Positions 49,300 to 64,000 of a stretch of 64,000 nt of DNA are shown here, one piece after another. A program made the position numbers and the translations under genes. Position 1 is the stretch's first letter, and every line of letters begins with the position of its first letter. The notes beneath the pieces are model-generated. The model saw only the letters and a program-made list of their open reading frames with translations, searched no databases and was not told where the DNA came from. The stretch comes from Gallionella capsiferriformans ES-2 (GTDB taxonomy: Bacteria; Pseudomonadota; Gammaproteobacteria; Burkholderiales; Gallionellaceae). The stretch is taken from assembly GCF_000145255.1 (NCBI RefSeq), contig NC_014394.1:1922001-1986000 (forward strand), written 5' to 3'.

Positions 49300-49334
49300 A
49301 ATGCTCTCCTTGATAAACAATTCAGTTAATGCGC

Positions 49335-49363
49335 AGGTGGGGGGAGAGAGTAACAATTTCAAG
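49335..49363 (-). promoter_or_regulatory. Sigma-32 (RpoH) heat-shock promoter of clpB
   Basis: On the minus strand, CTTGAAA (49357-49363) is followed after 14 bases by CCCCACCT (49335-49342), close to the sigma-32 consensus CTTGAAA...CCCCATNT. It lies about 35 bases upstream of the clpB ATG. Confidence 0.8.
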
Positions 49364-49425
49364 TCTGCACGATGAACGCTTATACTACGCTACCTTATCG
49401 GACAATACTGTTACTTGCCGCACCT

Positions 49426-50259
49426 ATGAACAATCTAACCTCTCACATTCAGAACAATGTCAAAAACTCGCTCGATGAGGACATCGGCGACGGCGATTTA
49501 ACGGCACAACTCTTGCCTGCAACGGCCCGCGCTCGTGCTCAGGTCATCACACGCCAGAGCGGCATCCTGTGCGGCAGCGCATGGTTTAACGAATGCTTTC
49601 TGGCGCTCGACCCGGCCTGTGTCATCACATGGTACGCAAAAGATGGCAATGCACTCCGTCCCGGGCAAACCCTGTGTGAAATTGAAGGGTACGCGCGCGC
49701 GCTGCTCACAGGAGAGCGCAGCGCACTAAACCTGTTGCAGACGCTGTCCGCGACCGCCACGCACACCCGCCGCTATGTCGATGCGGTGGCCGGCATTAAT
49801 GTCAAAATTATGGATACGCGAAAAACCTTGCCCGGACTGCGCCATGCACAAAAATACGCAGTGACGGTCGGCGGCGGACACAATCAGCGTGCCGGGCTTT
49901 TTGACGGCATCCTGATCAAGGAAAACCATATCGCAGCAGCAGGCAGCATCAAGGCTGTTTTGGATGCGGCTTTCAAACTCGCTAAGTCTGACGTATCAGT
50001 ACAAATCGAAGTGGAAAACATGATGCAACTTGATGAAGCACTGAATGCCGGCGCAAAATTGATCCTGCTCGACAACTTTGATCTCGACGCATTACGTTTT
50101 GCCGTAGAACACACCCGTGGGCGCGCTGAACTGGAAGCCTCCGGCGGCATCACCTTATCGGGTTTGCGCGAAATCGCCGAAACCGGCGTGGACCGCATTT
50201 CGATCGGCACACTGACCAAAGATATCGAAGCGCTGGATTTATCGATGCGAATTATGTAG
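49426..50259 (+). CDS. nadC: Nicotinate-nucleotide pyrophosphorylase (carboxylating)
   Basis: A 277-residue enzyme from the ATG at 49426 (MNNLTSHIQNNVKNSLDEDIG); the frame is open to 49372, but the extra 18 residues overlap the clpB promoter. Motifs are DIGDGDLT, GERSALNLLQTLSATAT, KIMDTRKTLPGLRHAQKYAV, GGGHNQRAGLFDGILIKENHI and EASGGITL. It converts quinolinate and PRPP to nicotinate mononucleotide in NAD synthesis. TATACT at 49381-49386 may be its -10 box. Confidence 0.94.
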   Translation: MNNLTSHIQNNVKNSLDEDIGDGDLTAQLLPATARARAQVITRQSGILCGSAWFNECFLALDPACVITWYAKDGNALRPGQTLCEIEGYARALLTGERSALNLLQTLSATATHTRRYVDAVAGINVKIMDTRKTLPGLRHAQKYAVTVGGGHNQRAGLFDGILIKENHIAAAGSIKAVLDAAFKLAKSDVSVQIEVENMMQLDEALNAGAKLILLDNFDLDALRFAVEHTRGRAELEASGGITLSGLREIAETGVDRISIGTLTKDIEALDLSMRIM

Positions 50260-50302
50260 CAAGTGGGAAGTGGGAAGTGGCAAAATATTTTAGGAAAAAA
50301 TC

Positions 50303-50737
50303 ATGACTGAATCTTTGCACATCGTCTGCCCGCATTGCGACGGCATAAACCGGGTACCTGGCGACAAATTAACGGAAAACCCGGTCTGCGGAAAATGCAA
50401 GGCATCGCTGTTCAACGCGCATCCGGTCGAACTCAATGCAGGAAATTTCAACCGCCATATCGGGCGCAGCGATATTCCTGTGCTGATCGATTTCTGGGCG
50501 CCCTGGTGCGGACCTTGCAAGATGATGGCGCCGGCTTTTGTAAAAGCGGCAGCGTTACTCGAACCCCGGATGCGGCTTGCAAAACTGGACACCGAGCAGG
50601 CGCAGGAACTGGCTGCTCAATACAACATCCGCAGCATCCCCACCCTGGCGCTGTTCAAAAATGGCCGCGAAATAGCTCGCCAGGCAGGCGCAATGGATGT
50701 AAACGGGATCGTCCAGTGGGCCCGCGCAAAACTTTAA
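50303..50737 (+). CDS. trxC: Thioredoxin 2 (TrxC) with N-terminal zinc finger
   Basis: A 144-residue protein. An N-terminal zinc ribbon with Cys9, Cys12, Cys29 and Cys32 (CPHC, CGKC) precedes a thioredoxin domain with WCGPC (Cys69, Cys72) and the cis-Pro region IRSIPTLALF. This arrangement defines thioredoxin 2. It reduces cytoplasmic disulfides, often under oxidative stress. AGGAAAAA precedes the start. It ends well before a structured non-coding stretch. Confidence 0.95.
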   Translation: MTESLHIVCPHCDGINRVPGDKLTENPVCGKCKASLFNAHPVELNAGNFNRHIGRSDIPVLIDFWAPWCGPCKMMAPAFVKAAALLEPRMRLAKLDTEQAQELAAQYNIRSIPTLALFKNGREIARQAGAMDVNGIVQWARAKL

Positions 50738-50868
50738 AGTCCAGCCGACTCATAGATGAGCTAAAAGAATACAAAACAGGAGTTATCCTACAAAAAATAA
50801 CGGCATTGGCCGACATTTTATTTTTTGCCGATATGGCATCATCCTCACAGTGGGTTTTAAGAGAGGGA

Positions 50869-50992
50869 CGGATTTCCATCCGCACTTTTCACCGTATTTT
50901 GCAAAATCTGCGGTGAAACTTCACTTGAAATTCACAGAGGTATGCAATTTATCTCTCCTCCTTGGGGCAATCTTCGGGTTGCCCATTTTTTC
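50869..50992 (+). ncRNA. Candidate structured RNA or 3' UTR downstream of trxC
   Basis: Three hairpins in a row: CGGAT-TTCC-ATCCG (50869-50882); TTTCACCG / CGGTGAAA (50887-50894 with 50911-50918) enclosing the perfect inner palindrome ATTTTGCAAAAT; and a strong terminator. Between the second and third lies an unpaired TCTCTCCTCC, complementary to ribosome-binding sites. The 5' end is not known: the RNA could be a separate small RNA or a processed 3' end of the trxC message. No clear promoter was found. Confidence 0.35.
50964..50992 (+). terminator. Rho-independent terminator downstream of trxC
   Basis: GGGCAA / TTGCCC (50965-50970 with 50979-50984), an 8-base loop and a run of six T (ATTTTTT). 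It acts on the plus strand only. Confidence 0.85.
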
Positions 50993-51024
50993 ATAGTCGC
51001 CCCGCAATAGCTAACCCGGTAATA

Positions 51025-54000
51025 TCAAACGGCGGATCCCTTTTCCGCCTCACGCTGAGCAGGTTTAAAGCGACGTGATAGCCACTGCACGACATCGTCC
51101 ACATAGGTAAACACGACCGGCACGACCAGCAGACTCAGGAAGGTTGACGTAATCAGCCCGCCGATCACGACGATTGCCATCGGCTCTCTGAAGCTACCAT
51201 CCCCCATGCCGAGATTGAGCGCGACCGGCAGCATGCCCGCCCCCATTGCCATCGTCGTCATCACAATCGGACGCGCGCGTTTGCGACAGGCGTCGAGCAG
51301 CGCATCTCCCCGGTTCATGCCCCGTTCGCGGCGCGAAATGATTGCATATTCAACCAAAAGTATGGAGTTTTTGGTCGCGATCCCCATCAACATGATCAAA
51401 CCGATCATCGAGGGCATCGACAGCGCAGTGCGCGAGAGAAATAACGCTAAGAACGCACCGGGTATTGACAGCACGAGCGCGGCCAATATCGTGGTCGGCT
51501 GCATAAAGTCCTTGAACAGAAGCACCAGCACGATATAGATACACAAAACACCGGTCGCCATCGCCAGACCAAAGCTTGCAAACAGTTCCTTCATCGCCTC
51601 GGCGTCCCCTATCGGTGCCAGCTCGATCCCGGCGGGCAACGTCAGGATTGACGGCAACGCCAGCGCGGCCGATTGCACCTTGCCCAAGGGTTGCCCCGCC
51701 AGTTCAATTTCGAAGGTCACATTGCGCTGCCGGTCATAACGGTCAATTTGCGCCGGCCCCGCATTCATCTCGATGCTGGCGATATTACCCAGCATCACAG
51801 GCCCCTTGGCGCCCGGCACGACCAGACGTGAGAGCAGCGCGATATTCTGTCTTGCCTCATCCTGCAACTTCACGACGATCGCCAACTGCCGGTCGGGCAG
51901 ATTGAGTTTAGCCAGCGCCTGATCGTAATCGCCATTGGTTGCCACCCGCAGGGTTTCGGCAATGGCGCTGGATGTCACCCCCAGATCCGCCGCTTTCGCA
52001 TAATCCGGACGCACCACGATCTCGGGGCGCAACAATCCGGCATTGGATACCACATTGCCCACGCCCGGTATCGTGCGCAACTCCTGCCCCACCTTGATCG
52101 AGTACTCATTGAGCAACTCGCCGTTTTCAGAGGACAGCACCAGTTGGTATTTATCGGCCGATGAGCCCATCCCCACCTTGACACGCACCCCGGGCAAGAC
52201 CGACAGTGCATCGCGCAGTTCGGCCTCGATCTTCTGCTTGGCAGGACGCTGATCCATGGGTTTCAATTGAACCGACAAAGTCGCACGACGCACTTCGGAA
52301 ACCCCGCCCGGCTCGAACGGATTACCCGCCGCAGAGCCGCCGCCGATCGCCGCATACACGAGTGTCACGTTGGCATTTTTAATCAGAATTTGACGCGCCT
52401 GCTCGGTCATCGCGAGCGAACTGTCAAAATTGCTGCCCGGGGCCAGCGTCAAAGACACCTGAGTTTGTGACTGGTTGTCTTTGGGCTGAAACGCCTTTTC
52501 AAGCGTACCGGCAAGGCCTAATGACCCCGCAAAAAAAATCGCCGTAACCAATAGCGTTGTTTTGCGGTGGGCAAGACACCAGCTGGCCCATGTCAGATAC
52601 ATGCCCATCCACGCGGGTTCGGCATGGGGCAACCGCGGGCGCAACAAATAGGCCGACATCATCGGCGTGAGCATGCGCGCCACCAGTAAGGAAAACAGCA
52701 CGGCAATCGCGGAGGTCCAGCCGAACTGCACGAAGAAGCGTCCCGGAATGCCGCTCATAAAGGCGGTTGGCAAAAACACCGCGACCAGCGTGAAAGTGGT
52801 CGCAATCACCGCCATACCGATCTCATCGGCTGCCTCCATTGCAGCCTCATAGGGTGTTTTTCCCATTTCCAGATGGCGCATAATGTTTTCGATTTCGACA
52901 ATCGCATCGTCCACCAGCACCCCCACCACCAGCGACAGCGACAACAAGGTAATCACGTTGATGGAAAAGCCGAACAGATACATCACGGCAAAGGTCGGAA
53001 TGACGGCCAGCGGCAAAGCCGTTGCGGCGACGACCGTTGCACGGGTATTGCGCAAAAAGAAGATCACGACGATCACCGCCAGCAACGCTCCCTCGAAGAT
53101 CATCTCCATCGAGCCCCGGTAGGCATCTGAAATCCGCTCGACGGTATCGAATACCTTTTCAGTATGCACATCGGGTCGTGAGGCTTGCAGTTTGTTGAGC
53201 GCTGCGGTCACACCATCGAACACCTCGACATCGCTAGAGCCCAACGATCTCATGATCTCAAAACCCACCACAGATTTTCCGTTAAGCATCGCCGCCTGAC
53301 GGCGCTCCGCGATGGTGTCACGAACGGTTGCCACTTCGCCCAGTCTGATGCTGCGACCGTCTTTAAGGCTCAGCGTCATCTGTTCGAGCTGCTCGGCTGT
53401 CTGCACGGTTGCGACGGTACGCACGGCCTGCTCCATGCCGCCAATATCCATACGCCCGCCGGGTGCTTCCTGCTCGATCAGTTTCAGCCTTGCGGACACA
53501 TCCGCCGCCGACAGGTTGAGTGCAAGCAGTTTGGCCGGATCAAGCTCTACACGCACCAGCCGCGTCACGCCGCCCACCCGACTGACCGCACCAACGCCCT
53601 TCACGCCCAGCATCAGCCGCGTCATGTTGTTGTCGACGAACCAGGACAATTCTTCCTCGCTCATGTTCGGCACGGTGACCGCATAAGTCAGTATGGGTTT
53701 ACCTGAAATCTCGACCTTGCTGATGACAGGCTCGTTGATTTCGCGCGGCAGATCGCTGCGCACCCGCGTGACGGCTGAACGCACATCTTCCAAGGCCGCA
53801 TGAGAGTCGCGCTCCAGCCTGAATTCGGCCGACACGATCGCTACGCCCTCTTTAACCTGGGTGTACAGGTGTTTTAAACCTTGCGCGCCCACTAGTGCAT
53901 TTTCGATCTTGCGCGCAACCTCCGCCTCCATCTGGTCGGGCGATGCGCCGGGCAAAGTGGTGGTCACCGTGATCATCGGCAAATCGATGTCGGGAAACAG

Positions 54001-54105
54001 CTGGACCTTCATGGCCGAAAAGCCCATGAAGCCCGCCAGCGTCAACAGTACAAACGCGAGTATCGCGGGTATCGGATTTTTGATCGACCAGGCTGAAACG
54101 TTCAT
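51025..54105 (-). CDS. RND efflux transporter permease (AcrB-like, HAE1 class)
   Basis: A 1026-residue inner-membrane pump. It has the standard first helix after MNVSAWSIKNPIPAILAFVLL, two large periplasmic loops, and the proton-relay pair in helix 4 (VGVLVDDAIVEIENIM). The second half repeats the fold (TSIPGAFLAL-type segment, GLIMLMGIATKNSILLVEYA). It would export hydrophobic compounds with the adaptor encoded just upstream (4-base overlap) and an outer-membrane channel located elsewhere. The exact substrate class, drug or other, is not visible; metal-type (HME) motifs are absent. Confidence 0.92.
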   Translation of the reverse strand: MNVSAWSIKNPIPAILAFVLLTLAGFMGFSAMKVQLFPDIDLPMITVTTTLPGASPDQMEAEVARKIENALVGAQGLKHLYTQVKEGVAIVSAEFRLERDSHAALEDVRSAVTRVRSDLPREINEPVISKVEISGKPILTYAVTVPNMSEEELSWFVDNNMTRLMLGVKGVGAVSRVGGVTRLVRVELDPAKLLALNLSAADVSARLKLIEQEAPGGRMDIGGMEQAVRTVATVQTAEQLEQMTLSLKDGRSIRLGEVATVRDTIAERRQAAMLNGKSVVGFEIMRSLGSSDVEVFDGVTAALNKLQASRPDVHTEKVFDTVERISDAYRGSMEMIFEGALLAVIVVIFFLRNTRATVVAATALPLAVIPTFAVMYLFGFSINVITLLSLSLVVGVLVDDAIVEIENIMRHLEMGKTPYEAAMEAADEIGMAVIATTFTLVAVFLPTAFMSGIPGRFFVQFGWTSAIAVLFSLLVARMLTPMMSAYLLRPRLPHAEPAWMGMYLTWASWCLAHRKTTLLVTAIFFAGSLGLAGTLEKAFQPKDNQSQTQVSLTLAPGSNFDSSLAMTEQARQILIKNANVTLVYAAIGGGSAAGNPFEPGGVSEVRRATLSVQLKPMDQRPAKQKIEAELRDALSVLPGVRVKVGMGSSADKYQLVLSSENGELLNEYSIKVGQELRTIPGVGNVVSNAGLLRPEIVVRPDYAKAADLGVTSSAIAETLRVATNGDYDQALAKLNLPDRQLAIVVKLQDEARQNIALLSRLVVPGAKGPVMLGNIASIEMNAGPAQIDRYDRQRNVTFEIELAGQPLGKVQSAALALPSILTLPAGIELAPIGDAEAMKELFASFGLAMATGVLCIYIVLVLLFKDFMQPTTILAALVLSIPGAFLALFLSRTALSMPSMIGLIMLMGIATKNSILLVEYAIISRRERGMNRGDALLDACRKRARPIVMTTMAMGAGMLPVALNLGMGDGSFREPMAIVVIGGLITSTFLSLLVVPVVFTYVDDVVQWLSRRFKPAQREAEKGSAV

Positions 54106-55202
54106 TGAGCGCGTCCTGCTACACGCACCAGATCACCCTCGACCAGAAATGCCCCACCCGATTCGACCACCTGCACCTCAGGCGAGAGTCCGCTGACAAT
54201 CTCAATCAGATTGCCCTGACGTCGCCCGGTGATAATTTTTTTCGCCGCAACATGGGAATCGGCCCCAAGCACGAACACAAACGCTGAATTGTCACGCAAC
54301 AGTACGGCCGACTGAGGCAATACCGTTGCCGTGTTTTCACCTGCGAGAAATACTCCCTTGGCAAACATACCTGCAACCAGTTCCGAATCAGCCGGCAGAT
54401 TGACCAGCACCTGCCCGTAGCGCGTCTGCTGATTGATCGCAGGCGATACCGCGCGCACCACCCCCTGCACCGGCTTACCCTGCGCCGTAGTCAATTCGAC
54501 TTTCATGCCTTTTTTGATCAGCCCCAGCTCGTCTGCCGTCACATCGGCGTGCCATTCCAGCCTGCCCTGACGGATCAGTCTGAACAGTTCCGCAGCAGGC
54601 TGCGTGATCGCGCCCACCGTGGCGTTGCGCGCTGAAATCACCCCCGCATCTGGCGCGGTGATATTTTGCTGCGCCAGTCGTTGTGCGCTGACCTTCAGAC
54701 GGGCGCGTTGCGCGTCCAGTTTGGCGCGCGCCGTATTTTCCAGCGTCACAGCCTGTCCCGCCTGCTGCGCGCTGACAAAACCCGATTCAAACAGTTTGCG
54801 TATGCGCGCGGCATTGGCCGATGCATCAGCCAGCACGGCCTCGCTCTCCCGCAAGGCTGCCTGAGACTCAGCCTCATTTGCCTGCAAAGTATCGTTTGCA
54901 AGCGTAGCCAGCACCTGTCCGCGCACAACCTCGTCGCCCACGCTCACCCGCACGTCTGCGATGCGCACGCCGGTAATTTCCGATCCGATGATCGCCTCCT
55001 GCCACGCCACGATGCTGCCGTTCGCCTGCAGCGTTTGCTGCCACTGTGCCGATTTCAACGTGGTCGTGACCACTGTCAGTGCGGGTTTAGCAGACTGGGG
55101 GATGCCTTTTTCAGCCGGCGCACGATGCAACACCAGCACGCCTGCCACCAAGACCACGCCTAGCATCGCCCAGCGGACTTTATTCGATTTCAATGCACTC
55201 AA
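54102..55202 (-). CDS. RND efflux periplasmic adaptor (membrane-fusion protein)
   Basis: A 366-residue HlyD-like protein with an N-terminal anchor (about 10-28), the lipoyl half-motifs (VSVGDEVVRGQVLATLAND and NITAPDAGVISARNATVGAI), a short coiled-coil hairpin and beta-barrel domains. It connects the pump of the next gene with an outer-membrane channel. It overlaps the permease by 4 bases and is the first gene of the pair. Confidence 0.92.
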   Translation of the reverse strand: MSALKSNKVRWAMLGVVLVAGVLVLHRAPAEKGIPQSAKPALTVVTTTLKSAQWQQTLQANGSIVAWQEAIIGSEITGVRIADVRVSVGDEVVRGQVLATLANDTLQANEAESQAALRESEAVLADASANAARIRKLFESGFVSAQQAGQAVTLENTARAKLDAQRARLKVSAQRLAQQNITAPDAGVISARNATVGAITQPAAELFRLIRQGRLEWHADVTADELGLIKKGMKVELTTAQGKPVQGVVRAVSPAINQQTRYGQVLVNLPADSELVAGMFAKGVFLAGENTATVLPQSAVLLRDNSAFVFVLGADSHVAAKKIITGRRQGNLIEIVSGLSPEVQVVESGGAFLVEGDLVRVAGRAQ

Positions 55203-55225
55203 AGTACTCTCCGTATTCCCGATAG

Positions 55226-55828
55226 TCAGGTGCGTTTACGCGCGACCAGATCGATCAGCGCCGACATGCCGCAATGGCCTGCGCCTTCACATAGTTCGCT
55301 GTCATGTTCTGTCAGATGCAGAATATCCATATCGGCAAACGCATCGCGCAAGAGTGCCTCCGTATACAGATTCTCCGCAGCAGAAGGCCCGCCGGTTTTA
55401 TATTCCAGCTGGCGCGGCGTATAGCCTTGCAGCAGCAACAGCCCGCCGGGTTTTAAGCAGCGTTTGATGCCTGCAAATTGCTGTTCGCGCGCAGCCGGAT
55501 TCGCGTACTGTATAAAGATACCGGCAACCAGATCGAAACGACTTTCCGGCCAGTCCCAGTGCGCCAAATCGACTAATTCACAGTCCATCTTGACGCCGCG
55601 CAGTTGCGCTAACGCGCGCGCCTTTTCAACCGCCACGCTGGCACTATCCACCGATAAAACCTGCAAACCTTGTTCAGTCAGCCACACGCCGTTACGCCCT
55701 TCGCCGTCCGCCACGGCAAGACAGGACGTACCGGGTTGCAGACGGTTCTGCTGCGAGACTAAAAAGGCATTCGGCTCGGTGCCAAAATGATATTCCTCAC
55801 CCGCATAACGCGCATTCCATACGCTCAT
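55226..55828 (-). CDS. Class I SAM-dependent methyltransferase
   Basis: The start at 55828 (MSVWNARYAGEEYHFGTEPNAFL) overlaps the psd stop by 4 bases and gives 200 residues; the frame open to 55873 lies inside psd. Motif I is CLAVADGEGRNGVWL, motif II VLSVDSASVAVEKARAL and the later acidic loop FDLVAGIFIQYA. The N-terminal WNARYA..EYHFGTEPN is typical of TehB/thiopurine-type small-molecule methyltransferases. The substrate is unknown. Confidence 0.87.
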   Translation of the reverse strand: MSVWNARYAGEEYHFGTEPNAFLVSQQNRLQPGTSCLAVADGEGRNGVWLTEQGLQVLSVDSASVAVEKARALAQLRGVKMDCELVDLAHWDWPESRFDLVAGIFIQYANPAAREQQFAGIKRCLKPGGLLLLQGYTPRQLEYKTGGPSAAENLYTEALLRDAFADMDILHLTEHDSELCEGAGHCGMSALIDLVARKRT

Positions 55829-56661
55829 AATCCCATCCCCTCGCCCATGCGCACGGGCAGCTGCGGCGCCCATTGCGCGTTAAATTTCAACGTGTCTTTC
55901 GGGAACAGCATCACGACCGTGGAACCTAGCAAAAAGCGCCCCATTTCATCGCCCTTTTTCAGATTAATTTGCTGATCGTCGTAGCGCCATTCACGCACCT
56001 CGCCGGTACGCGGCGGATTAACCACGCCATGCCAGACGGTCGCCATACTGCCGACGATGGTCGCACCGACCAGCGTCAAAACAAACTCACCCTGCGCGGT
56101 ATCAAAGACGCACACTACCCGTTCATTGCGCGCAAACAAACCCGGCACGCCGCGCGCGGTCACAGGATTCACCGAAAACAGATCGCCCGGCACATAGATC
56201 ATGCGCGTCAGGCGTCCGTCGCAAGGCATGTGGATGCGGTGATAATCGCGAGGACTCAGATAGATGGTGGCAAAGCTGCCGTCCTGAAACTGTGCCGCCA
56301 GCGTAGCATCGCCGCCGACCAGCGCGGTCGTCGAATAGGTGTGACCTTTCGCCTGAAACAGCTGATCATTTTCAATCGCTCCGAACTGGCTGATCGCGCC
56401 ATCGACCGGACAAACATAGGTAGCCGACGCCAAAGGACGCGCATCAGACTTTAAGGCGCGTGTGAAAAAATCATTGAAAGTGGCATAACTCTGCACATCG
56501 GGATTGGCCGCTTCCGCCATGTTCACGTTGTAACGTGCGATGAACCACTTGATCAACGAGGGCGTCCATGAGGCCTGCGCACTGGCGACTTTTCCGGCGA
56601 TTTCGGTCAGAGTCTGTTTTGGAAGAAGGTATTGCAAGAGAACTGCGAGACGATCGAACAC
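55825..56661 (-). CDS. psd: Phosphatidylserine decarboxylase
   Basis: A 278-residue proenzyme starting with GTG at 56661. The self-cleavage motif LGST has Gly246-Ser247, where cleavage creates the pyruvoyl cofactor from Ser247; the catalytic region YLSPRDYHRIHMPCDG is complete. It makes phosphatidylethanolamine at the inner membrane. A TATAAT at 56694-56699 (minus strand), 33 bases before the start, is the likely -10 box. Confidence 0.95.
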   Translation of the reverse strand: MFDRLAVLLQYLLPKQTLTEIAGKVASAQASWTPSLIKWFIARYNVNMAEAANPDVQSYATFNDFFTRALKSDARPLASATYVCPVDGAISQFGAIENDQLFQAKGHTYSTTALVGGDATLAAQFQDGSFATIYLSPRDYHRIHMPCDGRLTRMIYVPGDLFSVNPVTARGVPGLFARNERVVCVFDTAQGEFVLTLVGATIVGSMATVWHGVVNPPRTGEVREWRYDDQQINLKKGDEMGRFLLGSTVVMLFPKDTLKFNAQWAPQLPVRMGEGMGL

Positions 56662-56693
56662 GGTAGCCTGTCTGATTTTTATATCGGGTGCGC

Positions 56694-56699
56694 ATTATA
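56694..56699 (-). promoter_or_regulatory. Likely -10 box of the psd promoter
   Basis: A perfect TATAAT on the minus strand 33 bases before the psd GTG. No clear -35 lies 16-18 bases upstream. Confidence 0.45.
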
Positions 56700-56811
56700 C
56701 CCAATCATGCTGGTAAAAATTTTTAGCTATGCCCGCTTGATTCCATATAAAGCGAAAATCCCTTGCAAAATCAGAATTTTCCAATAGCGCCGAAAGCATT
56801 CGAGACACATA

Positions 56812-57018
56812 ATGTACAGCACAAATTTATTGCCCACCTTGGATTTCGTCAGCAATTATGAAAAGGTTGGCACAAAGCTGACGATCGTGACAAGCAACAA
56901 TGCGCCAATAGCAGCCACTCAATTTTCAATAGGTAGCCGATACAACTCTCCCCAAGACATTTCATTTTCGATTGATATTAAAAGCAACATTAGGCCAAGG
57001 GCGCGGCATGAATTTTGA
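56812..57018 (+). CDS. Doubtful small ORF overlapping the RelA/SpoT-like gene
   Basis: A 68-codon frame starting ATG (MYSTNLLPTLDFVSNYEKV) and ending 11 bases inside the following gene. Composition is Ser/Asn-rich, with no recognised domain and only a weak GAGA upstream. It could be a leader peptide or a small partner, but chance is as likely. Confidence 0.2.
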   Translation: MYSTNLLPTLDFVSNYEKVGTKLTIVTSNNAPIAATQFSIGSRYNSPQDISFSIDIKSNIRPRARHEF

Positions 57019-60000
57019 TGATTACGAAAAACGGTACTTTTCGCTCTACACCGAATATGCAGAGACCGTGCGGTTCATTATAGAGAAGGCAATAGCCGCT
57101 ACTGGCGGTTTGCCTGTCCTTCAGTCAATTCAAGCGCGAGCAAAAGCGCCGGACAGACTGAAAGATCGCCTTGAGGAAGTAGGCTTGATTGAGTCGCAGA
57201 ACATTGAAGAGGATCGAAAGGACCTCGCTGGGATCCGACTGATCTTTTACACAAATACTGACGTTGATAGGTTTTTAGCATCTCGCCTTATTTTCGAGAA
57301 TTTCGAGATTGACTTGCAGGCCACTAAGATTCACCACCCTACGAAAGAAAATGAGGGCACGCGATACCAAGCAATACACTATGTCGTAAGCCTGAAAGAA
57401 GAGCGCGCCAAGCTTCCGGAATATGCAAAGTTCAAAAAATTGCGCTGTGAAATTCAAATCCACACCATCTTGAATCATGCATGGTCTGAAACTTCACACG
57501 ATATTCTTTACAAGGATCGTCCGCATGCCGGGTTTGGCTCCAAGGCAATGGAGTCCATTTCCAAACGCTTCAACAACATCATGGACACGTATCTGATGCC
57601 AGCTGGCTACGAGTTTCAGCGAGTTCAGCATGATTACGAGCGGCTTCAACAAGGCAAGAAGCTTTTCGACAGAGGCGCTATTGCATCGCTACTCAGTGCA
57701 AAGAATAACAACGAGCGATACGATCTTCTCGTGTCTCTAAAGGAAGTCGCATTACCCAATTACGACGACATCGCGGCGATTTTCAGTGATCTGTACGAAC
57801 CATTACTCGAAAGTGCCAAACTGGCGCGATCAACACCAGACGAGCAAATCGACACGCCATTCGGTAAGCTTAAAGGTAAGAGCTCAACTGATGTATTGCG
57901 TGTCATCGTTCAGATTTTTGATTACCTTCGATATGTAAATATTGAGAAAACATTCAACGCTTACTGCGAACTATTTGAGGCGGAGTCAGACGCTGATGTG
58001 CGTAAACAAATTCTGGATAGTGTAAAGCGCCTATCCGAATACGAGTTTAAAACTTGGAATCAAGTTGGGCCACAAATTCAGCAGTTTCTGGCAAATATGC
58101 TTTCTCAAATGAAGCCAGAGAGACAAGCATCCCTCCGCTCACTAATCATAACTGCATGGCGCGAACTATTAGCCGGAGACATCTCGGGTACGACTTGGTC
58201 AGCCGATTCAGTGACATGGCAAACCGGAGCCTTGCCTGTATCGGACACGCTAAAACAGATACGAGGTCTGGCTATCGCTGGTCTATTCGACCTCTTTCAA
58301 AGTGCGCAAACAGACAAGGAGAAAAGGGATGTTTTATCCGCCTTGGATGCCGCTGCACAGTTGCCCCATCAAGCTGCATACTCCAATGAATTGATGGCGC
58401 TTACCCTTGTCAATTCAAAGCAAATAGTCGATTTTTATATAGGAGCGTCTGACACGCTTTCCTATGAACTGCTGGAACATGTCGAGCATAAGCTTCTGTG
58501 GAATTATCGACGTACTCCCCAACTTGCTAATGACGAAGGAGGCAAGTTCAATTGCCAAGCTGAAGCCCAAGCACTCATCGGCGCTATCGAGGCATTTCGT
58601 GACCGCATAAATACGAACGATGATTTTGTGCGTTATAAGACGCTCGTGGGGTACGAGGCAGTCTTTCCACAACATTGGATCAATAATAAATTCGACTACC
58701 AAGAAGTCGAGAAGTATCGAAAAAAACAAATAGACCAGTTTGTGAATTCCATAATTGCCGAAAACGAAGCTGAATGGTTTGCGTGCATGGAGCGATGTGC
58801 TCTTACCAAGTCAAACGACTTGGCTACCTTCCCAACCTTCGTTACCTTTGTTGTGGCTCTGTCGAAAACAAAGCCTGCGGTTGTTGATAGATACCTTGAG
58901 GCTGCAACAGAGAACCTTCTTAATTTCTTGCCGGGTTTTCTTGATGGGCTAGCTCAAAGCGGTAATGAGGATATTTACCTGCGTGTGGTGGCAAGGTTTA
59001 TAGAACAAGGGACACAACTAACAGCGCTGGCAAGACATTGGAGAAATTCAAAGCCAGCGCAGCCCTCGCTGATTTTCGAAGTTCTCAGGAAGGCGATTGC
59101 CGCTAAAGACAATATTGCAGTTATCGAATGCATGCTCTTTTCGATGGAAGAAAGCGGGAGCCAAAGAGTTCCACCAAGCAATGACCTCTTCCGCCCCGCG
59201 TTGGTTTACCTGACAGAAAGCAAGGACGCGCGTTGGGTGCATGGGGCTTGGTTTTTGGGGGAAATACCAGACTTCTTTAAGCACTTGTCTGACGATGACG
59301 CCTCACTCCTATTGCAAAACCTTGTCCCAGCACCGCGAATCGAGTTCGACTCTGAAAGGCTGCTTGAGCTGATTGCCGAGCATCACCTCCAAGCTGTCTG
59401 GAAGTACTTCGGCGACCGGCTAATCTACGAGGCAGATAAAGGAGAAGATGATAAATACGAAGCCATACCATATGGATTTGGTGGACTTGAAAAACAACTC
59501 TCGCGAGACGTCTCACTCGCAATATCATTCGGACGCACTTGGTTTGCTCAAGATAAAGAAATATTTCAATACAGAGGTGGACGCCTACTAAGTTCGGCAT
59601 TTCCACACTGTGCTGAGACTTTTGCGCAGGCGTTGGCTAACCTAGTAACTAACGGCAACGATACCGATGCAGATTTTGTGTTAGATGTTATGCAAAACTA
59701 TAATGAAGAGCCTTCCACTCACGAAGTTCTCAAACGAATCGTGGATCGCTATTCTCAGGACGATTCAAAACTAAACAGGGTGGAAATTTGTTTCGACAAG
59801 ACTGGCGTGGTAATGGGGGAGTTTGGATTTGCCGACGCATATCGAGCAAAAAAACAATCCATATTGGCATGGGTGGATGATCCACGCTTGGCAGTCCGCA
59901 ATTTTGCCGAGGCTCATTCTGCGGAGTTAGATGTCCGCATTGCTTCAGAGCAAAAGCGAGCTGATGAACGCATCGAAATGAGACGTCGCAAGTTTGATGT

Positions 60001-60034
60001 CGACCTCGGTTCCGATGGCAATGGGGAATCATAA
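57008..60034 (+). CDS. Large RelA/SpoT-domain protein with long helical C-terminal region
   Basis: The ATG at 57008 (MNFDDYEKRYFSLYTEYAE) has AAGGG 7 bases upstream and gives 1008 residues; an ATG at 56972 would add 12. Residues about 15-215 match the (p)ppGpp-synthetase fold: RAK at 44-46, DLAGIRLIF at 72-80, GTRYQAIHY at 117-125 and CEIQIHTILNHAW at 147-159 followed by H164 and YK 168-169. The catalytic Glu (148 in EIQIHT) is present. No HD hydrolase, TGS or ACT domain is seen. The remaining roughly 780 residues look all-helical with no membrane segment, perhaps HEAT/ARM-like, and the C-terminus is charged (EQKRADERIEMRRRKFDVD). It stands alone between psd and a long non-coding stretch, and is AT-richer than its neighbours, which suggests transfer. 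Function inferred: alarmone-type or nucleotide-modifying effector; the long part may be the sensor. Confidence 0.85.
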   Translation: MNFDDYEKRYFSLYTEYAETVRFIIEKAIAATGGLPVLQSIQARAKAPDRLKDRLEEVGLIESQNIEEDRKDLAGIRLIFYTNTDVDRFLASRLIFENFEIDLQATKIHHPTKENEGTRYQAIHYVVSLKEERAKLPEYAKFKKLRCEIQIHTILNHAWSETSHDILYKDRPHAGFGSKAMESISKRFNNIMDTYLMPAGYEFQRVQHDYERLQQGKKLFDRGAIASLLSAKNNNERYDLLVSLKEVALPNYDDIAAIFSDLYEPLLESAKLARSTPDEQIDTPFGKLKGKSSTDVLRVIVQIFDYLRYVNIEKTFNAYCELFEAESDADVRKQILDSVKRLSEYEFKTWNQVGPQIQQFLANMLSQMKPERQASLRSLIITAWRELLAGDISGTTWSADSVTWQTGALPVSDTLKQIRGLAIAGLFDLFQSAQTDKEKRDVLSALDAAAQLPHQAAYSNELMALTLVNSKQIVDFYIGASDTLSYELLEHVEHKLLWNYRRTPQLANDEGGKFNCQAEAQALIGAIEAFRDRINTNDDFVRYKTLVGYEAVFPQHWINNKFDYQEVEKYRKKQIDQFVNSIIAENEAEWFACMERCALTKSNDLATFPTFVTFVVALSKTKPAVVDRYLEAATENLLNFLPGFLDGLAQSGNEDIYLRVVARFIEQGTQLTALARHWRNSKPAQPSLIFEVLRKAIAAKDNIAVIECMLFSMEESGSQRVPPSNDLFRPALVYLTESKDARWVHGAWFLGEIPDFFKHLSDDDASLLLQNLVPAPRIEFDSERLLELIAEHHLQAVWKYFGDRLIYEADKGEDDKYEAIPYGFGGLEKQLSRDVSLAISFGRTWFAQDKEIFQYRGGRLLSSAFPHCAETFAQALANLVTNGNDTDADFVLDVMQNYNEEPSTHEVLKRIVDRYSQDDSKLNRVEICFDKTGVVMGEFGFADAYRAKKQSILAWVDDPRLAVRNFAEAHSAELDVRIASEQKRADERIEMRRRKFDVDLGSDGNGES

Positions 60035-60527
60035 AAATTTTAGAGTATTTGGAAGAAAATACATGCTGTTCTTTCCAGGTATATATCCTGCAATAACGCC
60101 AACCTAATCAATAAGTTAGTAGCATAAACTTTTGAATTTTTAAACAGAATAAATGAAGTATCCTAACTGACTGCTGTGTCTCGATTGCAGATATACAGGA
60201 TTGAAAATTGTTTGCTCATTAGCAGACCGTCACGCACGGGGCAGGGATTTTCATTTAAATGAACACCAAGTCAGGCAATAGCGGAAAAATCGCCATTCCT
60301 CATCGCGCAGGCAGATCCAGCTCCCCTGCGCTCCTCGCACTTGTACTATGCGCATCTATTTAATGCACCAGCTCGATACTGACTATGCAGCGCGCCGTCA
60401 CTCTGTTGTGTGTTATTAACCCGCATTCTCGCAATAGACCGAAATACATAGCCCATCAGACATATTGATTCGTTGTTGACTTGCCATTATCGTCTGCGCT
60501 CAGGATTTGCAGAGATTTTCAGCATGA
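60035..60527. other. Long gene-free region after the RelA/SpoT-like gene
   Basis: About 490 bases with no credible gene on either strand and no strong terminator. The one clear element is a 14-bp perfect palindrome TTCATTTAAATGAA at 60250-60263. It may be decayed sequence or hold the promoter for the next gene. Confidence 0.45.
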
Positions 60528-60914
60528 CCCGGACTGCAAAATAGCTCGATTGAAGGCTCGGCTGCAGCGGTTGACAGGCAAGTTACACCCCTCTGCCGAC
60601 ACCGCGCACCATTCTGTGTAACCCACATATTCTTCTGTGAACACGGCAGAACATTCGGTGAAGAGATCATCGCATTCGACGGGCACGGAATAGCGTTCGG
60701 TAGCGATTACATTTCATTCGGTGGGTACCGCATAGCATTCGCTGGGAACATAGCACCGGTTAAAAACAATTTCACACCTCTCGCTCGCAACCCGCGAGAG
60801 GTTGACAAGAAGTTCAGAGCAATCAACAGGAAGCTTCCAGCACAAAAAAATGGCTCTAAAAAGCAGGATTTACTCGCAGCGTTAACCGCGTCATCAATCA
60901 AGGGAGTTACTCAC
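60528..60914 (+). other. Start-less open frame in phase with the following gene
   Basis: From just after a TGA at 60525-60527, the frame is open for 129 codons and runs in phase into the 60915 gene, but it contains no ATG, GTG or TTG. It includes seven degenerate heptapeptides. It may be the decayed or frameshifted N-terminal part of a longer ancestor, or be translated from a rare start (CTG at 60534 or ATT at 60549). Confidence 0.5.
60612..60758 (+). repeat. Seven tandem 21-bp repeats (heptapeptide-coding)
   Basis: Units start at 60612, 60633, 60654, 60675, 60696, 60717 and 60738. Each begins TTC (Phe), and the best ones read TTCGGTGGG...ATAGCA. Translated in the frame of the next gene they give FCVTHIF, FCEHGRT, FGEEIIA, FDGHGIA, FGSDYIS, FGGYRIA and FAGNIAP, consensus F-G-x-x-x-I-A. 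Confidence 0.85.
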
Positions 60915-61607
60915 ATGCCGAATGCCACTTACATGCCGCAAAACGAAACAGCGAAACTCGAACTACTGGAACATCTGGCCGCTATTTCTCCGAAGTACCA
61001 GAGCACGGTTGAAATCAGTGATGCTGACATGGAGGCTCTGAAAAACGATGCGATTAACCTGCGCCTCGCTCACACACTGAAGCATCAGGCGCAAAGTTTT
61101 GGGCACCAATGTACCGCTTACATGCATCTGCTCTGGGAGGGCGACAGCGGCGATACGAGCTGGCCTACCGCACCCGCTATCGTACCGAATCCCGCACAAA
61201 TCATCACACCCGGCGCTACCGCGCGACTCTCTTCTCTGGTGGCACGCATCAAGGCGCATAAAAATTACACCACCGCAATCGGACAGGATTTACATATTAT
61301 AGGGGCCGCAATCGTGCTTGATACGGCAAGCTTGAAACCCGCTTTAAGCGTTAAGTTCAATGCCGGTCATCCGGTTATTGCATGGACTAAAGGCCAGGCC
61401 GCTGCGATTGAAATCCATGTAGATAGAGGGGATGGCAACGGCTTTACATTTTTCACTATCAACACCGAGCCTGACACCCTTGATGACACACCGCTCCCTG
61501 CTGCTGGCACCGGCGTTAACTGGCAATACAAGGCCATTTATCGTTTGCATGATGCACAGGTCGGCCAATGGAGCGATGTCGTAAGCATCAAGGCCGTCAG
61601 CTCATAA
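60915..61607 (+). CDS. Unknown protein with C-terminal FN3-like domain
   Basis: The ATG at 60915 follows AGGGAG by 8 bases and gives 230 residues. The N-terminal half is helical (ELLEHLAAISPKYQSTVEISDADMEAL); the C-terminal part (from about residue 150) has the strand pattern of a fibronectin type III-like domain: AIEIHVDRGDGNGFTFF and WQYKAIYRLHDAQVGQWSDVVSI. No signal peptide or membrane helix. I do not recognise the family. The heptapeptide-repeat frame upstream is in phase, so an older form of the gene may have been longer. It ends before a bidirectional terminator. Confidence 0.75.
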   Translation: MPNATYMPQNETAKLELLEHLAAISPKYQSTVEISDADMEALKNDAINLRLAHTLKHQAQSFGHQCTAYMHLLWEGDSGDTSWPTAPAIVPNPAQIITPGATARLSSLVARIKAHKNYTTAIGQDLHIIGAAIVLDTASLKPALSVKFNAGHPVIAWTKGQAAAIEIHVDRGDGNGFTFFTINTEPDTLDDTPLPAAGTGVNWQYKAIYRLHDAQVGQWSDVVSIKAVSS

Positions 61608-61652
61608 TTTTTTCTGCGATGTATATAAGACAGTCTGACTGTCGCCAATTAA

Positions 61653-61683
61653 AAGTGTGCCTAGAGCATATTCCGGCACACTT
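61653..61683. terminator. Hairpin terminator between convergent genes
   Basis: AAGTGTGCC (61653-61661) pairs perfectly with GGCACACTT (61675-61683). On the minus strand it is followed by TTTAATT, so it suits the AEC transporter gene best; it may also act on the plus strand. Confidence 0.75.
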
Positions 61684-61693
61684 ACTTAACCAT

Positions 61694-62599
61694 CTATATA
61701 CCCCGCATCAGCCACCACCACCCGGTGAGGGTGAAGAAGGACGCAATCAGTCCTACCGCGACCATCAGATTCACCAGCGGCGGATCCAGATCGTGCTCGG
61801 CGGCGACAATAGCCGCCGTAATCATAGGCGGCATCGCGGCTTCAAACAGCGTGACCTGAATCGCCTGACCGTGCGCACCCAGTATCGGCACATACAGCAG
61901 CAAAACGGCAAGCGGCGCCAGAATCAGCTTAAATCCTAAACCCAGCGCCAGATTGCGCTTGTGCTCGCTGACATGTCCGAGGCGCAGTTGCAGACCGACC
62001 GACAGCAAAGCCAACGGCGCCAGTGTATCCCCTAAGCGTTTGAGTAACACGGTAAACCAGTCGGCATACTCGACTGGTATCAGCAGCAAAGCAATCGCCA
62101 ATGAAATGAAAGGCGGAAACAAGGCGATGCGCTTGAAAATCTGCATCGCCGTCGGACGCCCCGATGAGTAAATACCCGCCACGGTGATGCCCAGAATAGA
62201 TAAGGCAAAGAAGGAGCCTAGTTGATCGGCGATAATGGCGGTGGTCAGGCCCGAGGACCCGTAAAACGCCTCCACCATCGGCAGACCGAAAAACGAGGTA
62301 TTGCCTAAACCGCCCACCAGAATTAACGCGCCTGTGGTGGCTCGCGGTAATTTCAGCCAGCGCCCGACAAAATAGAAAAAGCCTGCCGACAGCCCGAACA
62401 CCAGCCAAGCCATCAAGCCTGTGAGGAGAATATCGCCCGAGAGTGTCAGCCGATGAATGTACAGCAGCGACAAGGCCGGCAATGACACGTGAATAATAAA
62501 ACTGTTCAGCGTTGCCGGCGCATTGTCCGGCATGCGTCGAAAATACCGCAGCAGCATACCTGCGACAAAACAGAGGACGAGCAGCAGCAGATTGTTCAT
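61694..62599 (-). CDS. AEC-family (auxin efflux carrier-like) transporter
   Basis: A 301-residue protein with about ten membrane helices and typical features of the AEC/BASS-like family: FVGRWLKLPRATTGALILVGGLGNTSFFGLPMVEAFYG in the first half and LGLGFKLILAPLAVLLLY followed by EAAMPPMITAAIVAAEHDLDP in the second, with broken helices at GNTSFFG. Bacterial members export or import small carboxylates such as malate or malonate; the substrate here is unknown. It lies 18 bases after thrC in the same direction. Confidence 0.88.
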   Translation of the reverse strand: MNNLLLLVLCFVAGMLLRYFRRMPDNAPATLNSFIIHVSLPALSLLYIHRLTLSGDILLTGLMAWLVFGLSAGFFYFVGRWLKLPRATTGALILVGGLGNTSFFGLPMVEAFYGSSGLTTAIIADQLGSFFALSILGITVAGIYSSGRPTAMQIFKRIALFPPFISLAIALLLIPVEYADWFTVLLKRLGDTLAPLALLSVGLQLRLGHVSEHKRNLALGLGFKLILAPLAVLLLYVPILGAHGQAIQVTLFEAAMPPMITAAIVAAEHDLDPPLVNLMVAVGLIASFFTLTGWWWLMRGI

Positions 62600-62617
62600 G
62601 CCTCTGTCAGGTGCCGA

Positions 62618-64000
62618 TCAATTAGGGATGTGCGCAGAAATGAATGCCTTGAGCTGCATCACATCCGCATCCATCACCTCGACTTTTTGCGGCAGTTCTT
62701 CGATTCCCATCATCGACTCCGGACGTTCAGGTTTGCGCCCCAATGCCTCGACGATGGTTTCTTCGAACTTGGCGGGCAGTGCTGTTTCCAGACAGATCAG
62801 CGGCAGACCGGGACGGCGCTGCTCAAGGCCGACCTTCAGCCCATCTGCGGTATGCGGATCCACCATCACGCCGTACTCTTCCCACAACTCACGGATCGTT
62901 TTGAGGCGATCCAGATGAGTGCTTTTTCCCGACGAGAATTTAAACTTTGCCAGCTCGTGCCAGCAGTCACTTCCCTTGATGTCGAACGCAGCGGTATCTG
63001 TTGAACTGGCAGCATCCACTCGGCTCCAGAATTCCCGCACCTTCTCGCCATCGCGTCCGACCAGATCGTACACGAAACGCTCGAAATTGGACGCTTTGGA
63101 AATATCCATCGACGGGCTGCTGGTCTGATAGGTGTGATCTGTGCCGCGCGGACGATAAGCCCCCGTGCGGAAAAATTCGTCCAATACATCGTTTTCGTTG
63201 GTGGCCAGAATCAGCTGACCGATCGGCAATCCCATCATGCGCGCGATGTGACCTGCACAGATATTGCCGAAATTGCCCGACGGCACGGAAAACGCAACTT
63301 GCTCGTCGTTCGATTGGGTCGCCGCGAAATAGCCCTTAAAGTAATACACGATCTGCGCCGACACACGCCCCCAGTTGATCGAATTGACGGTGCCAATCTT
63401 GTGAGCGGCCTTGTAAGCGTGATCATTGGACACGGCTTTGACCATATCCTGCGCGTCGTCGAACATGCCGTTGATCGCGATATTGTGGATATTCTCATCC
63501 TGCAGCGAATACATCTGCGCGCGCTGGAAGGCCGACATTTTCCCGTTCGGCGAGAGCATAAACACACGGATGCCGCGTTTTCCCCGCATCGCGTATTCGG
63601 CAGCCGATCCGGTGTCGCCCGAGGTCGCGCCGAGAATATTCAGCTCCTGATGCTGCTTGTCCAGCGCGTATTCGAACAGGTTGCCCAGCAGCTGCATCGC
63701 CATGTCCTTGAACGCCAGCGTCGGCCCGTTGGACAATTCGAGTATATGCACGCCCGGCACCAGGGTGCGCAACGGGGTAATCTGGGAAAAGTCAGAATCT
63801 GCACGACCGTTGTTATAGATGTCAGCCGTATAGGTTCGTGCGACGATCGCCTGCAAATCCGCTGCCGGAATGTCAGTGGCAAACTTGGACAGCACCGCAT
63901 ACGCCAGATCCGCATAGGACAGCGTGCGCCATGCATCGAGCTCAGCGCGCGTGACCTGCGGATATTCCTCAGGCAGATACAATCCGCCATCGGGCGCCAG
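62618..64000 (-). CDS. thrC: Threonine synthase, N-terminus beyond the window
   Basis: The frame is open to the last base (reading LAPDGGLYLPEEYPQV at the edge), so the true start lies beyond 64000; a TTG at 63982 is internal. The 460 residues present have the PLP-lysine region LSNGPTLAFKDMAMQ, the phosphate loop LGATSGDTGSAAEYA, VPSGNFGNICAG and a C-terminal small domain. It converts O-phosphohomoserine to threonine. Length and motifs fit the long, E. coli/yeast-type threonine synthase. Confidence 0.95.
   Translation of the reverse strand: MAPDGGLYLPEEYPQVTRAELDAWRTLSYADLAYAVLSKFATDIPAADLQAIVARTYTADIYNNGRADSDFSQITPLRTLVPGVHILELSNGPTLAFKDMAMQLLGNLFEYALDKQHQELNILGATSGDTGSAAEYAMRGKRGIRVFMLSPNGKMSAFQRAQMYSLQDENIHNIAINGMFDDAQDMVKAVSNDHAYKAAHKIGTVNSINWGRVSAQIVYYFKGYFAATQSNDEQVAFSVPSGNFGNICAGHIARMMGLPIGQLILATNENDVLDEFFRTGAYRPRGTDHTYQTSSPSMDISKASNFERFVYDLVGRDGEKVREFWSRVDAASSTDTAAFDIKGSDCWHELAKFKFSSGKSTHLDRLKTIRELWEEYGVMVDPHTADGLKVGLEQRRPGLPLICLETALPAKFEETIVEALGRKPERPESMMGIEELPQKVEVMDADVMQLKAFISAHIPN

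What the first reader, a model, noticed from the sequence alone, without database searches (positions are those of the whole stretch)
57008..60034. 1008-residue protein fusing a RelA/SpoT-type synthetase domain to a giant helical region
The N-terminal 200 residues keep the synthetase motifs (DLAGIR, GTRYQAIHY, CEIQIHT with the catalytic Glu), but there is no hydrolase domain and no TGS/ACT regulatory part. Instead about 780 helical residues follow, which I cannot match to a known family. RelA/SpoT-fold enzymes without hydrolase include toxic small alarmone synthetases and the phage-sensing CapRel, some of which pyrophosphorylate tRNA. A long helical repeat region fused to such a catalytic head looks like a sensor or scaffold in a defence or stress system. 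The gene stands alone, is AT-richer than its neighbours and lies next to a long non-coding stretch, which suits horizontal gain.
Basis: partly seen in the sequence, partly recalled or inferred. Interest (0 to 1): 0.78.

Follow-up and report, generated by a model that had tools for sequence, protein, structure and literature searches.

The report
Solenoid-mounted RelA-like growth-arrest switch
This bacterial gene, missing from the same spot in three related genomes, fuses a RelA/SpoT-type enzyme domain to a long predicted coil of helices whose relatives elsewhere sit beside a predicted RNA-cutting enzyme, and it is likely a mobile immune switch that would stop growth when the coil senses infection.

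Summary
In detail: window 57008-60034 encodes 1008 residues, a RelA/SpoT synthetase head with conserved motifs (1-~195), then ~800 residues that AlphaFold2 predicts with high confidence (pLDDT 93) as a HEAT/ARM-type solenoid. Hundreds of relatives exist. The gene is patchy (full length in 2 of 37 genus genomes) and lies in a ~5-kb block missing from three relatives; its 92%-identical relative sits elsewhere with no shared flank. Head and tail are under purifying selection. Key finding: the same solenoid, headless, is a stand-alone ~800-aa protein directly downstream of a PIN-ribonuclease-like gene (4 of 4 loci with context), and a diverged version ends a STAND-like NTPase. So one solenoid family works with different effectors. 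At least 4 of 14 loci examined carry recognised defence genes (Dsr2-like, AbiE, restriction-modification, Fic); four carry integrases. Best reading: an enzyme-plus-solenoid immune switch working like DSR2 or CapRel, in which an unknown trigger bound by the solenoid would release pyrophosphokinase activity. Substrate (tRNA or purine nucleotide), trigger and phage protection are untested. The tail is not detectably homologous to the one Dsr2-like tail tested, and no convincing sequence relative of it was found in the PDB.

The parts
57008..60034 (+). CDS of the 1008-residue RelA/SpoT-solenoid protein
   Evidence: AAGGG ribosome-site-like run at 56997-57001
57008..57592 (+). RelA/SpoT synthetase head, residues 1 to ~195; R44/K46 (57137-57145), D72 (57221-57223), Y120 (57365-57367), E148 (57449-57451)
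57605..59992 (+). helical solenoid, residues ~200-995 (predicted)
   Evidence: AlphaFold2 models; HEAT/ARM-type neighbours only; homologous to stand-alone solenoid proteins beside PIN genes
56705..61694 (.). block inserted relative to three genomes of the genus, between an ORF that I recall as phosphatidylserine decarboxylase (55825-56661, -) and a membrane-transporter-like ORF (61694-62599, -; name also recalled)
   Evidence: BLASTN against G001, G011, G015 regions: matches end at 56701-56704 and resume at 61695-61698, with 10-13 bp between them in those genomes

Best explanation
The gene encodes a RelA/SpoT-type synthetase domain with conserved active-site motifs fused to a predicted HEAT/ARM solenoid, and it is likely a mobile single-gene immune switch in which the solenoid would hold the head inactive until it binds an infection cue. 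Shown here: the fusion, the conserved motifs, the purifying selection, the inserted block, and the occurrence of the same solenoid family beside a PIN-ribonuclease-like gene or behind a STAND-like NTPase. Inferred: the solenoid is the sensor and regulator, and the head is a growth-arresting effector. On triggering, the head would transfer pyrophosphate from ATP to an acceptor. [quoted passage not shown] this step is untested. It would thus work like DSR2 (SIR2 head on a HEAT array) or CapRel (toxSAS head with a sensing antitoxin domain).
For: Active site: FaRel2's donor-site and catalytic residues R64, K66, D90, G93, R95, Y128, E145, Q147 (PMC11782079, section 8 read) correspond by motif to R44, K46, D72, G75, R77, Y120, E148, Q150; all of these but G75 were counted and are kept in 120-121 of 121 sequences. 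dN/dS against the G029 relative (ratios from the dN and dS): 0.108 for residues 1-200, 0.254 for 225-1008, 0.216 overall. Effector change: plasmid tblastn finds residues ~300-999 alone in two plasmids, each in an ~800-aa protein starting 2 bases after a PIN gene; the same in G545 and one IMG/VR contig, 3 bases after. Tree of tails: 10 stand-alone tails (4 with a seen PIN partner) form one clade, 100/100, against 30 fused tails. STAND-like link: BLASTP 8e-11, hhalign 99.6%; control: the same profile against a Dsr2-like tail gives 0.2%. Defence neighbours in at least 4 of 14 loci: Dsr2-like (E 1.5e-125), AbiEi/AbiEii, methyltransferases and PDC-S15, Fic. Integrases at four loci: L054, L057, L007, L008. 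Empty sites.
Confidence: 0.52

Rival explanations
1. A stress-responsive alarmone synthetase, not a defence protein: the solenoid binds a host component or metabolite and the head makes (p)ppGpp or (p)ppApp to tune growth, as RelP and RelQ do.
For: Head fold and sequence are nearest to RelQ/RelP-type enzymes; the G-loop Tyr120 and His124 are invariant in the subfamily; several solenoid motifs are invariant.
Against: Patchy, mobile distribution; same solenoid family beside a PIN-RNase-like gene in other loci, which fits alarmone tuning poorly; defence neighbours in at least 4 of 14 loci.
Confidence: 0.25
2. An addiction-type fused toxin-antitoxin element: the solenoid simply neutralises the head, and the gene persists by plasmid or element stabilisation rather than by sensing phage.
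For: Relatives on plasmids and beside integrases; fused toxin plus inhibitor layout as in CapRel; the G000 and G029 copies share only the gene itself.
Against: An 800-residue conserved solenoid is far larger than the antitoxin domains I know of; a single-polypeptide fusion cannot give the usual unequal-decay addiction; some copies are on chromosome-size contigs (G000, G567).
Confidence: 0.13
3. A scaffold or RNA-processing enzyme: the solenoid is a substrate-binding platform that presents RNA to the attached head or to the PIN protein, in ordinary RNA metabolism.
For: Both partner effectors are of kinds that act on nucleotides or RNA; the nearest solved folds of the tail are scaffolds and carriers.
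Against: Rare distribution (full length in 2 of 398 phylum genomes) does not fit a housekeeping role; a diverged solenoid lies behind a STAND-like NTPase, a signalling architecture.
Confidence: 0.07

Closest known systems
CapRel (toxSAS head fused to a phage-sensing antitoxin domain)
   Same: One polypeptide; N-terminal RelA/SpoT-type synthetase head with the G-loop Tyr and no hydrolase; a C-terminal part that would sense and restrain. CapRel facts from passages of PMC13423816.
   Different: CapRel chains in the PDB set are 372-373 aa with a pseudo-zinc-finger domain; here the C-terminal part is a ~800-residue solenoid, the head has a shorter N terminus, and no sequence match to CapRel appears at E<=1.
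DSR2 (SIR2 head on a HEAT-repeat array that binds phage tail tube protein)
   Same: About 1000 residues; N-terminal enzyme head followed by a long helical/HEAT region and a C-terminal domain (passages of PMC11263360). A Dsr2-like gene is the third annotated gene downstream of the Rhizobium plasmid relative.
   Different: Different enzyme; the solenoid profile is not detectably homologous to the tail of that Dsr2-like protein (hhalign 0.2%).
Small alarmone synthetases of the RelQ/RelP kind
   Different: The solved ones are 209-255-aa free chains; this is a rare, mobile 1008-aa fusion.
PIN + ~800-aa solenoid two-gene pairs (found here, unnamed)
   Same: Homologous solenoid, 23-29% identical to this tail.
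   Different: The effector is a PF16289 PIN protein encoded by a separate upstream gene.
RelA domains among effectors of NTP-dependent conflict systems (PMC7159879, passages only)
   Same: RelA nucleotidyltransferase and PIN domains both named as effector domains of conflict systems; EAD10, matched weakly by the Aulosira relative, is described there.
   Different: No solenoid fusion of this kind is described in the seven passages I saw; I did not read the whole text.

Membership tests
RelA/SpoT synthetase domain (PF04607) | Sequence match above the curated cut-off, with catalytic motifs | tested here: met
Long RSH (Rel/RelA/SpoT) | HD hydrolase domain and TGS/ACT regulatory part | tested here: not met
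   Only PF04607 passes in Pfam; ~40 residues before it and a predicted solenoid after ~200
toxSAS / CapRel | Synthetase head without hydrolase | tested here: met
toxSAS / CapRel | CapRel layout: ~370 aa with a pseudo-zinc-finger domain after the head | tested here: not met
   1008 aa; residues ~200-995 predicted as a solenoid; the two CapRel entries align with model residues 2-219 and 2-228 only
toxSAS / CapRel | Toxic when unrestrained; pyrophosphorylates tRNA CCA ends or makes (pp)pApp | not testable with these tools
   needs experiment; residue evidence is mixed
DSR2 | SIR2 NADase head | tested here: not met
   head is RelA/SpoT
DSR2 | Homologous helical tail | tested here: not met
   hhalign of the solenoid profile with one Dsr2-like tail (from L008): probability 0.2%; the solved DSR2 itself was not compared
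Olokun OloA | Specific match to the OloA model | tested here: not met
   No match for this protein at E<=1; one PIN-type relative matches at 3e-7, but the model also rings in 2 of 14 control genomes, so that match looks like generic HEAT similarity
PADLOC PDC-S33 (phage-defence candidate) | Match over the whole 349-position model | tested here: inconclusive
   E 8e-10 but only model positions 94-196, the synthetase core; I did not find a definition of the candidate beyond the model

The most novel reading that the evidence does not exclude
A previously undescribed immune-sensor module: one conserved HEAT/ARM solenoid family that plugs into interchangeable effectors, a fused RelA/SpoT pyrophosphokinase, a separately encoded PIN ribonuclease, or a STAND NTPase in a cyanobacterial plasmid, so that bacteria can couple the same kind of infection cue to tRNA pyrophosphorylation, RNA cleavage or a signalling switch.
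Probability: 0.4. Interest if true: 0.78.

Novelty: new variant of a known kind. Interest (0 to 1): 0.62.

Why it matters
Effectors of bacterial immunity are usually recognised first, and their sensors stay unknown. A single solenoid family found with three kinds of partner makes the sensing half the constant and the effector the variable. That allows a direct test: find the trigger once and ask whether it also works for the PIN and STAND-like relatives. It would also extend RelA/SpoT-type enzymes from short toxins to large solenoid-gated switches, and it offers a clean case (a single mobile gene with empty sites) for phage challenge.

Tried and rejected
Olokun: an OloA match of one PIN-type relative was dropped as generic, because the OloA model also rings in Synechococcus elongatus and Methanosarcina acetivorans, 2 of 14 controls. 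A Cas8b match of this protein at E 0.0034 covers 199-356 of the helical region and was taken as chance. The MzaA and RT_UG29 rows are false friends: on the L007 plasmid they fall on the annotated rpoD and dnaG, and each family rings in 7 of the 14 records searched and in 10 and 11 of 14 controls; not counted as defence genes. The mad2 and RTasDnaG-like rows were not counted either. G1033 matches only 63 residues, in an ORF that Pfam calls ADP-ribosylglycohydrolase; ignored. G457 has only an 82-residue piece with a stop; not counted as a gene.

Control for defence neighbours: 47 ORFs of the window gave no Dsr2, AbiE, restriction-modification or Fic match at 1e-8, but did give 7 other PADLOC families. 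This control is one genome region, not matched by genome or element, so no enrichment is claimed. Terminal repeats: a 14-nt imperfect inverted pair flanks the gene (56796-56809 / 60175-60188), but the G029 relative does not share these flanks and chance pairs are common; not interpreted. Promoter and terminator scan: 3 and 4 sites, all on the other strand and no more than in shuffles.

Literature: the listings (titles and abstract starts of 1 to 20 papers each; some queries matched hundreds more) showed no paper on this fusion or on the PIN-solenoid pair. The library holds open-licence papers only, so this is not proof of absence. Passages only were seen of PMC10121019, PMC10952713, PMC11263360, PMC11559606, PMC12691689, PMC13092281, PMC13423816 and PMC7159879; of PMC11782079, sections 8 and 12 and passages. 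The DefensePredictor main text has no whole word RelA or SpoT.

Full report
What is there. The ORF at 57008-60034 (+) encodes 1008 residues. Pfam finds one domain above its cut-off, RelA_SpoT at 44-171, 42.9 bits against 27. A protein search scored 7992 candidates and found 811 relatives at E<=1e-3; the 120 listed cover 82-100% of the query at 47-95% identity. A second search with a distant plasmid relative (28% identical) found 242, of which 120 are listed. I call the listed sets subfamily 1 (121 with this protein) and subfamily 2 (120).

Active site. FaRel2 residues that hold ATP and magnesium, and its G-loop Tyr, are given in PMC11782079 section 8. The matching positions here were found by motif, not from a structure of a complex. 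In subfamily 1, R44, Y120, E148 and Q150 are kept in 121 of 121, and K46, D72 and R77 in 120 of 121. In subfamily 2, R44, K46, D72 and R77 are kept in 118 of 120 (the other two are gaps), and E148 and Q150 in 120 of 120; but Y120 is Phe in 96 of 120 and H124 is Asn in 97 of 120. This protein itself has Arg at 50, where 96 of 121 have Ser. So the donor-site motifs are kept, while the acceptor loop differs between subfamilies. Against the 90%-identical G029 protein, dN and dS (NG86) are 0.035 and 0.319 for residues 1-200, and 0.053 and 0.208 for 225-1008: in this one pair, both parts are held by selection.

The solenoid has other partners. tblastn of plasmids (13 records matched) gave two where only residues ~300-999 match: Pseudanabaena (E 1e-68) and Legionella adelaidensis (E 1e-59). 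In both, the match is an ~800-aa stand-alone protein that begins 2 bases after a gene annotated as PIN domain-containing. A solenoid-only profile (A2, 16 sequences) then found the same pair in genome G545 and in one IMG/VR contig. All four upstream proteins match PF16289 (E 4e-25 to 4e-14) and keep acidic residues at the aligned PIN positions (which acids are catalytic is from recall). Eleven solenoid-only proteins were found by protein search; their gene neighbours were not seen. In a tree of tails, the four with a seen PIN partner and six of those eleven form one clade, 100/100, against 30 fused tails. Two very long-branched rows, SAS_L086 and STAND_L058, were left out of that tree; with them in, both fall outside the two groups and the tool warns that their place is unsure. 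A third architecture is a 1206-aa protein of an Aulosira plasmid with EAD10 and AAA/STAND matches below Pfam's cut-offs at the N terminus and a tail related to this one (tblastn 2e-8 with the L007 solenoid; BLASTP 8e-11 over 212 residues, 21% identity; hhalign 99.6% over 693 columns). As a check that helical repeats do not match each other freely here, the same profile against the tail of a Dsr2-like protein gave 0.2%.

Mobility. In 37 genomes of the genus (this one included) the full-length gene is in 2; one more has a head-only match. In 398 phylum genomes, 57 had some match: 2 full length, 1 part of a tail in a longer frame, 54 head only. In 399 genomes of the order, 5 matched the solenoid: three fused, one with PIN, one fragment. 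In 360 genomes of the class, 3 matched: this one, one divergent fused protein (L086) and one probable chance match. The window block 56705-61694 is missing in G001, G011 and G015, where the two flanks lie 10-13 bp apart. A fourth genome (G033) has other DNA of about 1.6 kb there; two more regions (L080, L081) match only the left side and say nothing about the block. The G029 relative is 92% identical in DNA over 56980-60021 only; its 10 kb on either side share nothing with window 48001-64000, and a PDDEXK-family transposase gene lies about 1 kb upstream. So the gene itself, not a block, is what these two genomes share.

Neighbours. I scanned 131 neighbour proteins from 14 loci (one row with stop codons dropped) against PADLOC at 1e-8, and 28 proteins of my choice one by one (not all are neighbours). 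Recognised defence genes: L008, a Dsr2-like SIR2 protein (E 1.5e-125); L057, AbiEi and AbiEii (3.9e-134, 5e-112); L086, methyltransferase models and PDC-S15 (that frame has a stop in the search output); L060, a Fic/Schlafen-type protein 348 bp after the gene (Pfam; PDC-S04 5e-22, SoFic 1e-16). That is at least 4 of 14 loci; the PADLOC table showed only 25 of 95 families, so weaker ones may be hidden. Four of the 131 carry a phage integrase domain: at L054, L057 (92% identical to the L054 one), L007 and L008 (annotated). L054 and L057 are thus related elements, not independent cases. Two strong-looking rows, MzaA and RT_UG29, turned out to be rpoD and dnaG.

How it most likely works. The layout, an enzyme head on a long solenoid, is that of DSR2, whose HEAT and C-terminal domains bind a phage tail protein (passages of PMC11263360), and the head is of the kind that CapRel uses to pyrophosphorylate tRNA when a phage protein relieves autoinhibition (passages of PMC13423816). 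I infer that the solenoid senses and restrains, and that the head arrests growth. The tRNA choice is weak: the K8/R9 pair lies at FaRel2's K28/R29 offset, needed there for tRNA binding (passages of PMC11559606), but is only partly conserved, and the head is nearer to RelQ/RelP-type enzymes overall. The alternative, nucleotide pyrophosphorylation, could also arrest growth.

Limits. I have no activity, toxicity, trigger or phage data. Gene names of the window's flanking ORFs are recalled.

Noticed in passing
window 60652-60749: Short direct repeats built on CATTCGGTG (three 35-nt copies, two of them 66% and 71% like the first, spacing 42 and 21) in the non-coding stretch after the gene.
   Followed up: no
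window 60915-61607 (+): A 230-aa ORF in the same inserted block has no Pfam match at 0.01.
   Followed up: partly
window 56796-56809 and 60175-60188: A 14-nt, 93% complementary inverted pair flanks the gene; could be chance.
   Followed up: partly
L008:6653-10585: In the Rhizobium plasmid the RelA/SpoT-solenoid protein continues in frame into a poly-gamma-glutamate hydrolase domain (1310 aa).
   Followed up: no
L010:6571-7581: A filamentous Vibrio phage of 8.1 kb encodes a 336-aa protein with a RelA/SpoT-like head.
   Followed up: no
L013-L040: Proteins with a related RelA/SpoT head but no solenoid, mostly in frames of about 320-480 aa, are common in the phylum sample: 54 of 398 genomes have a head-only match.
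   Followed up: partly
L086:5666-8668: A very divergent RelA/SpoT-solenoid protein (hhalign 99.6%, 16% identity over the tail) lies near restriction-modification genes.
   Followed up: partly
L079:3312-4881: In genome G033 the same intergenic spot holds about 1.6 kb of different DNA, so the spot may be a small insertion hotspot.
   Followed up: no
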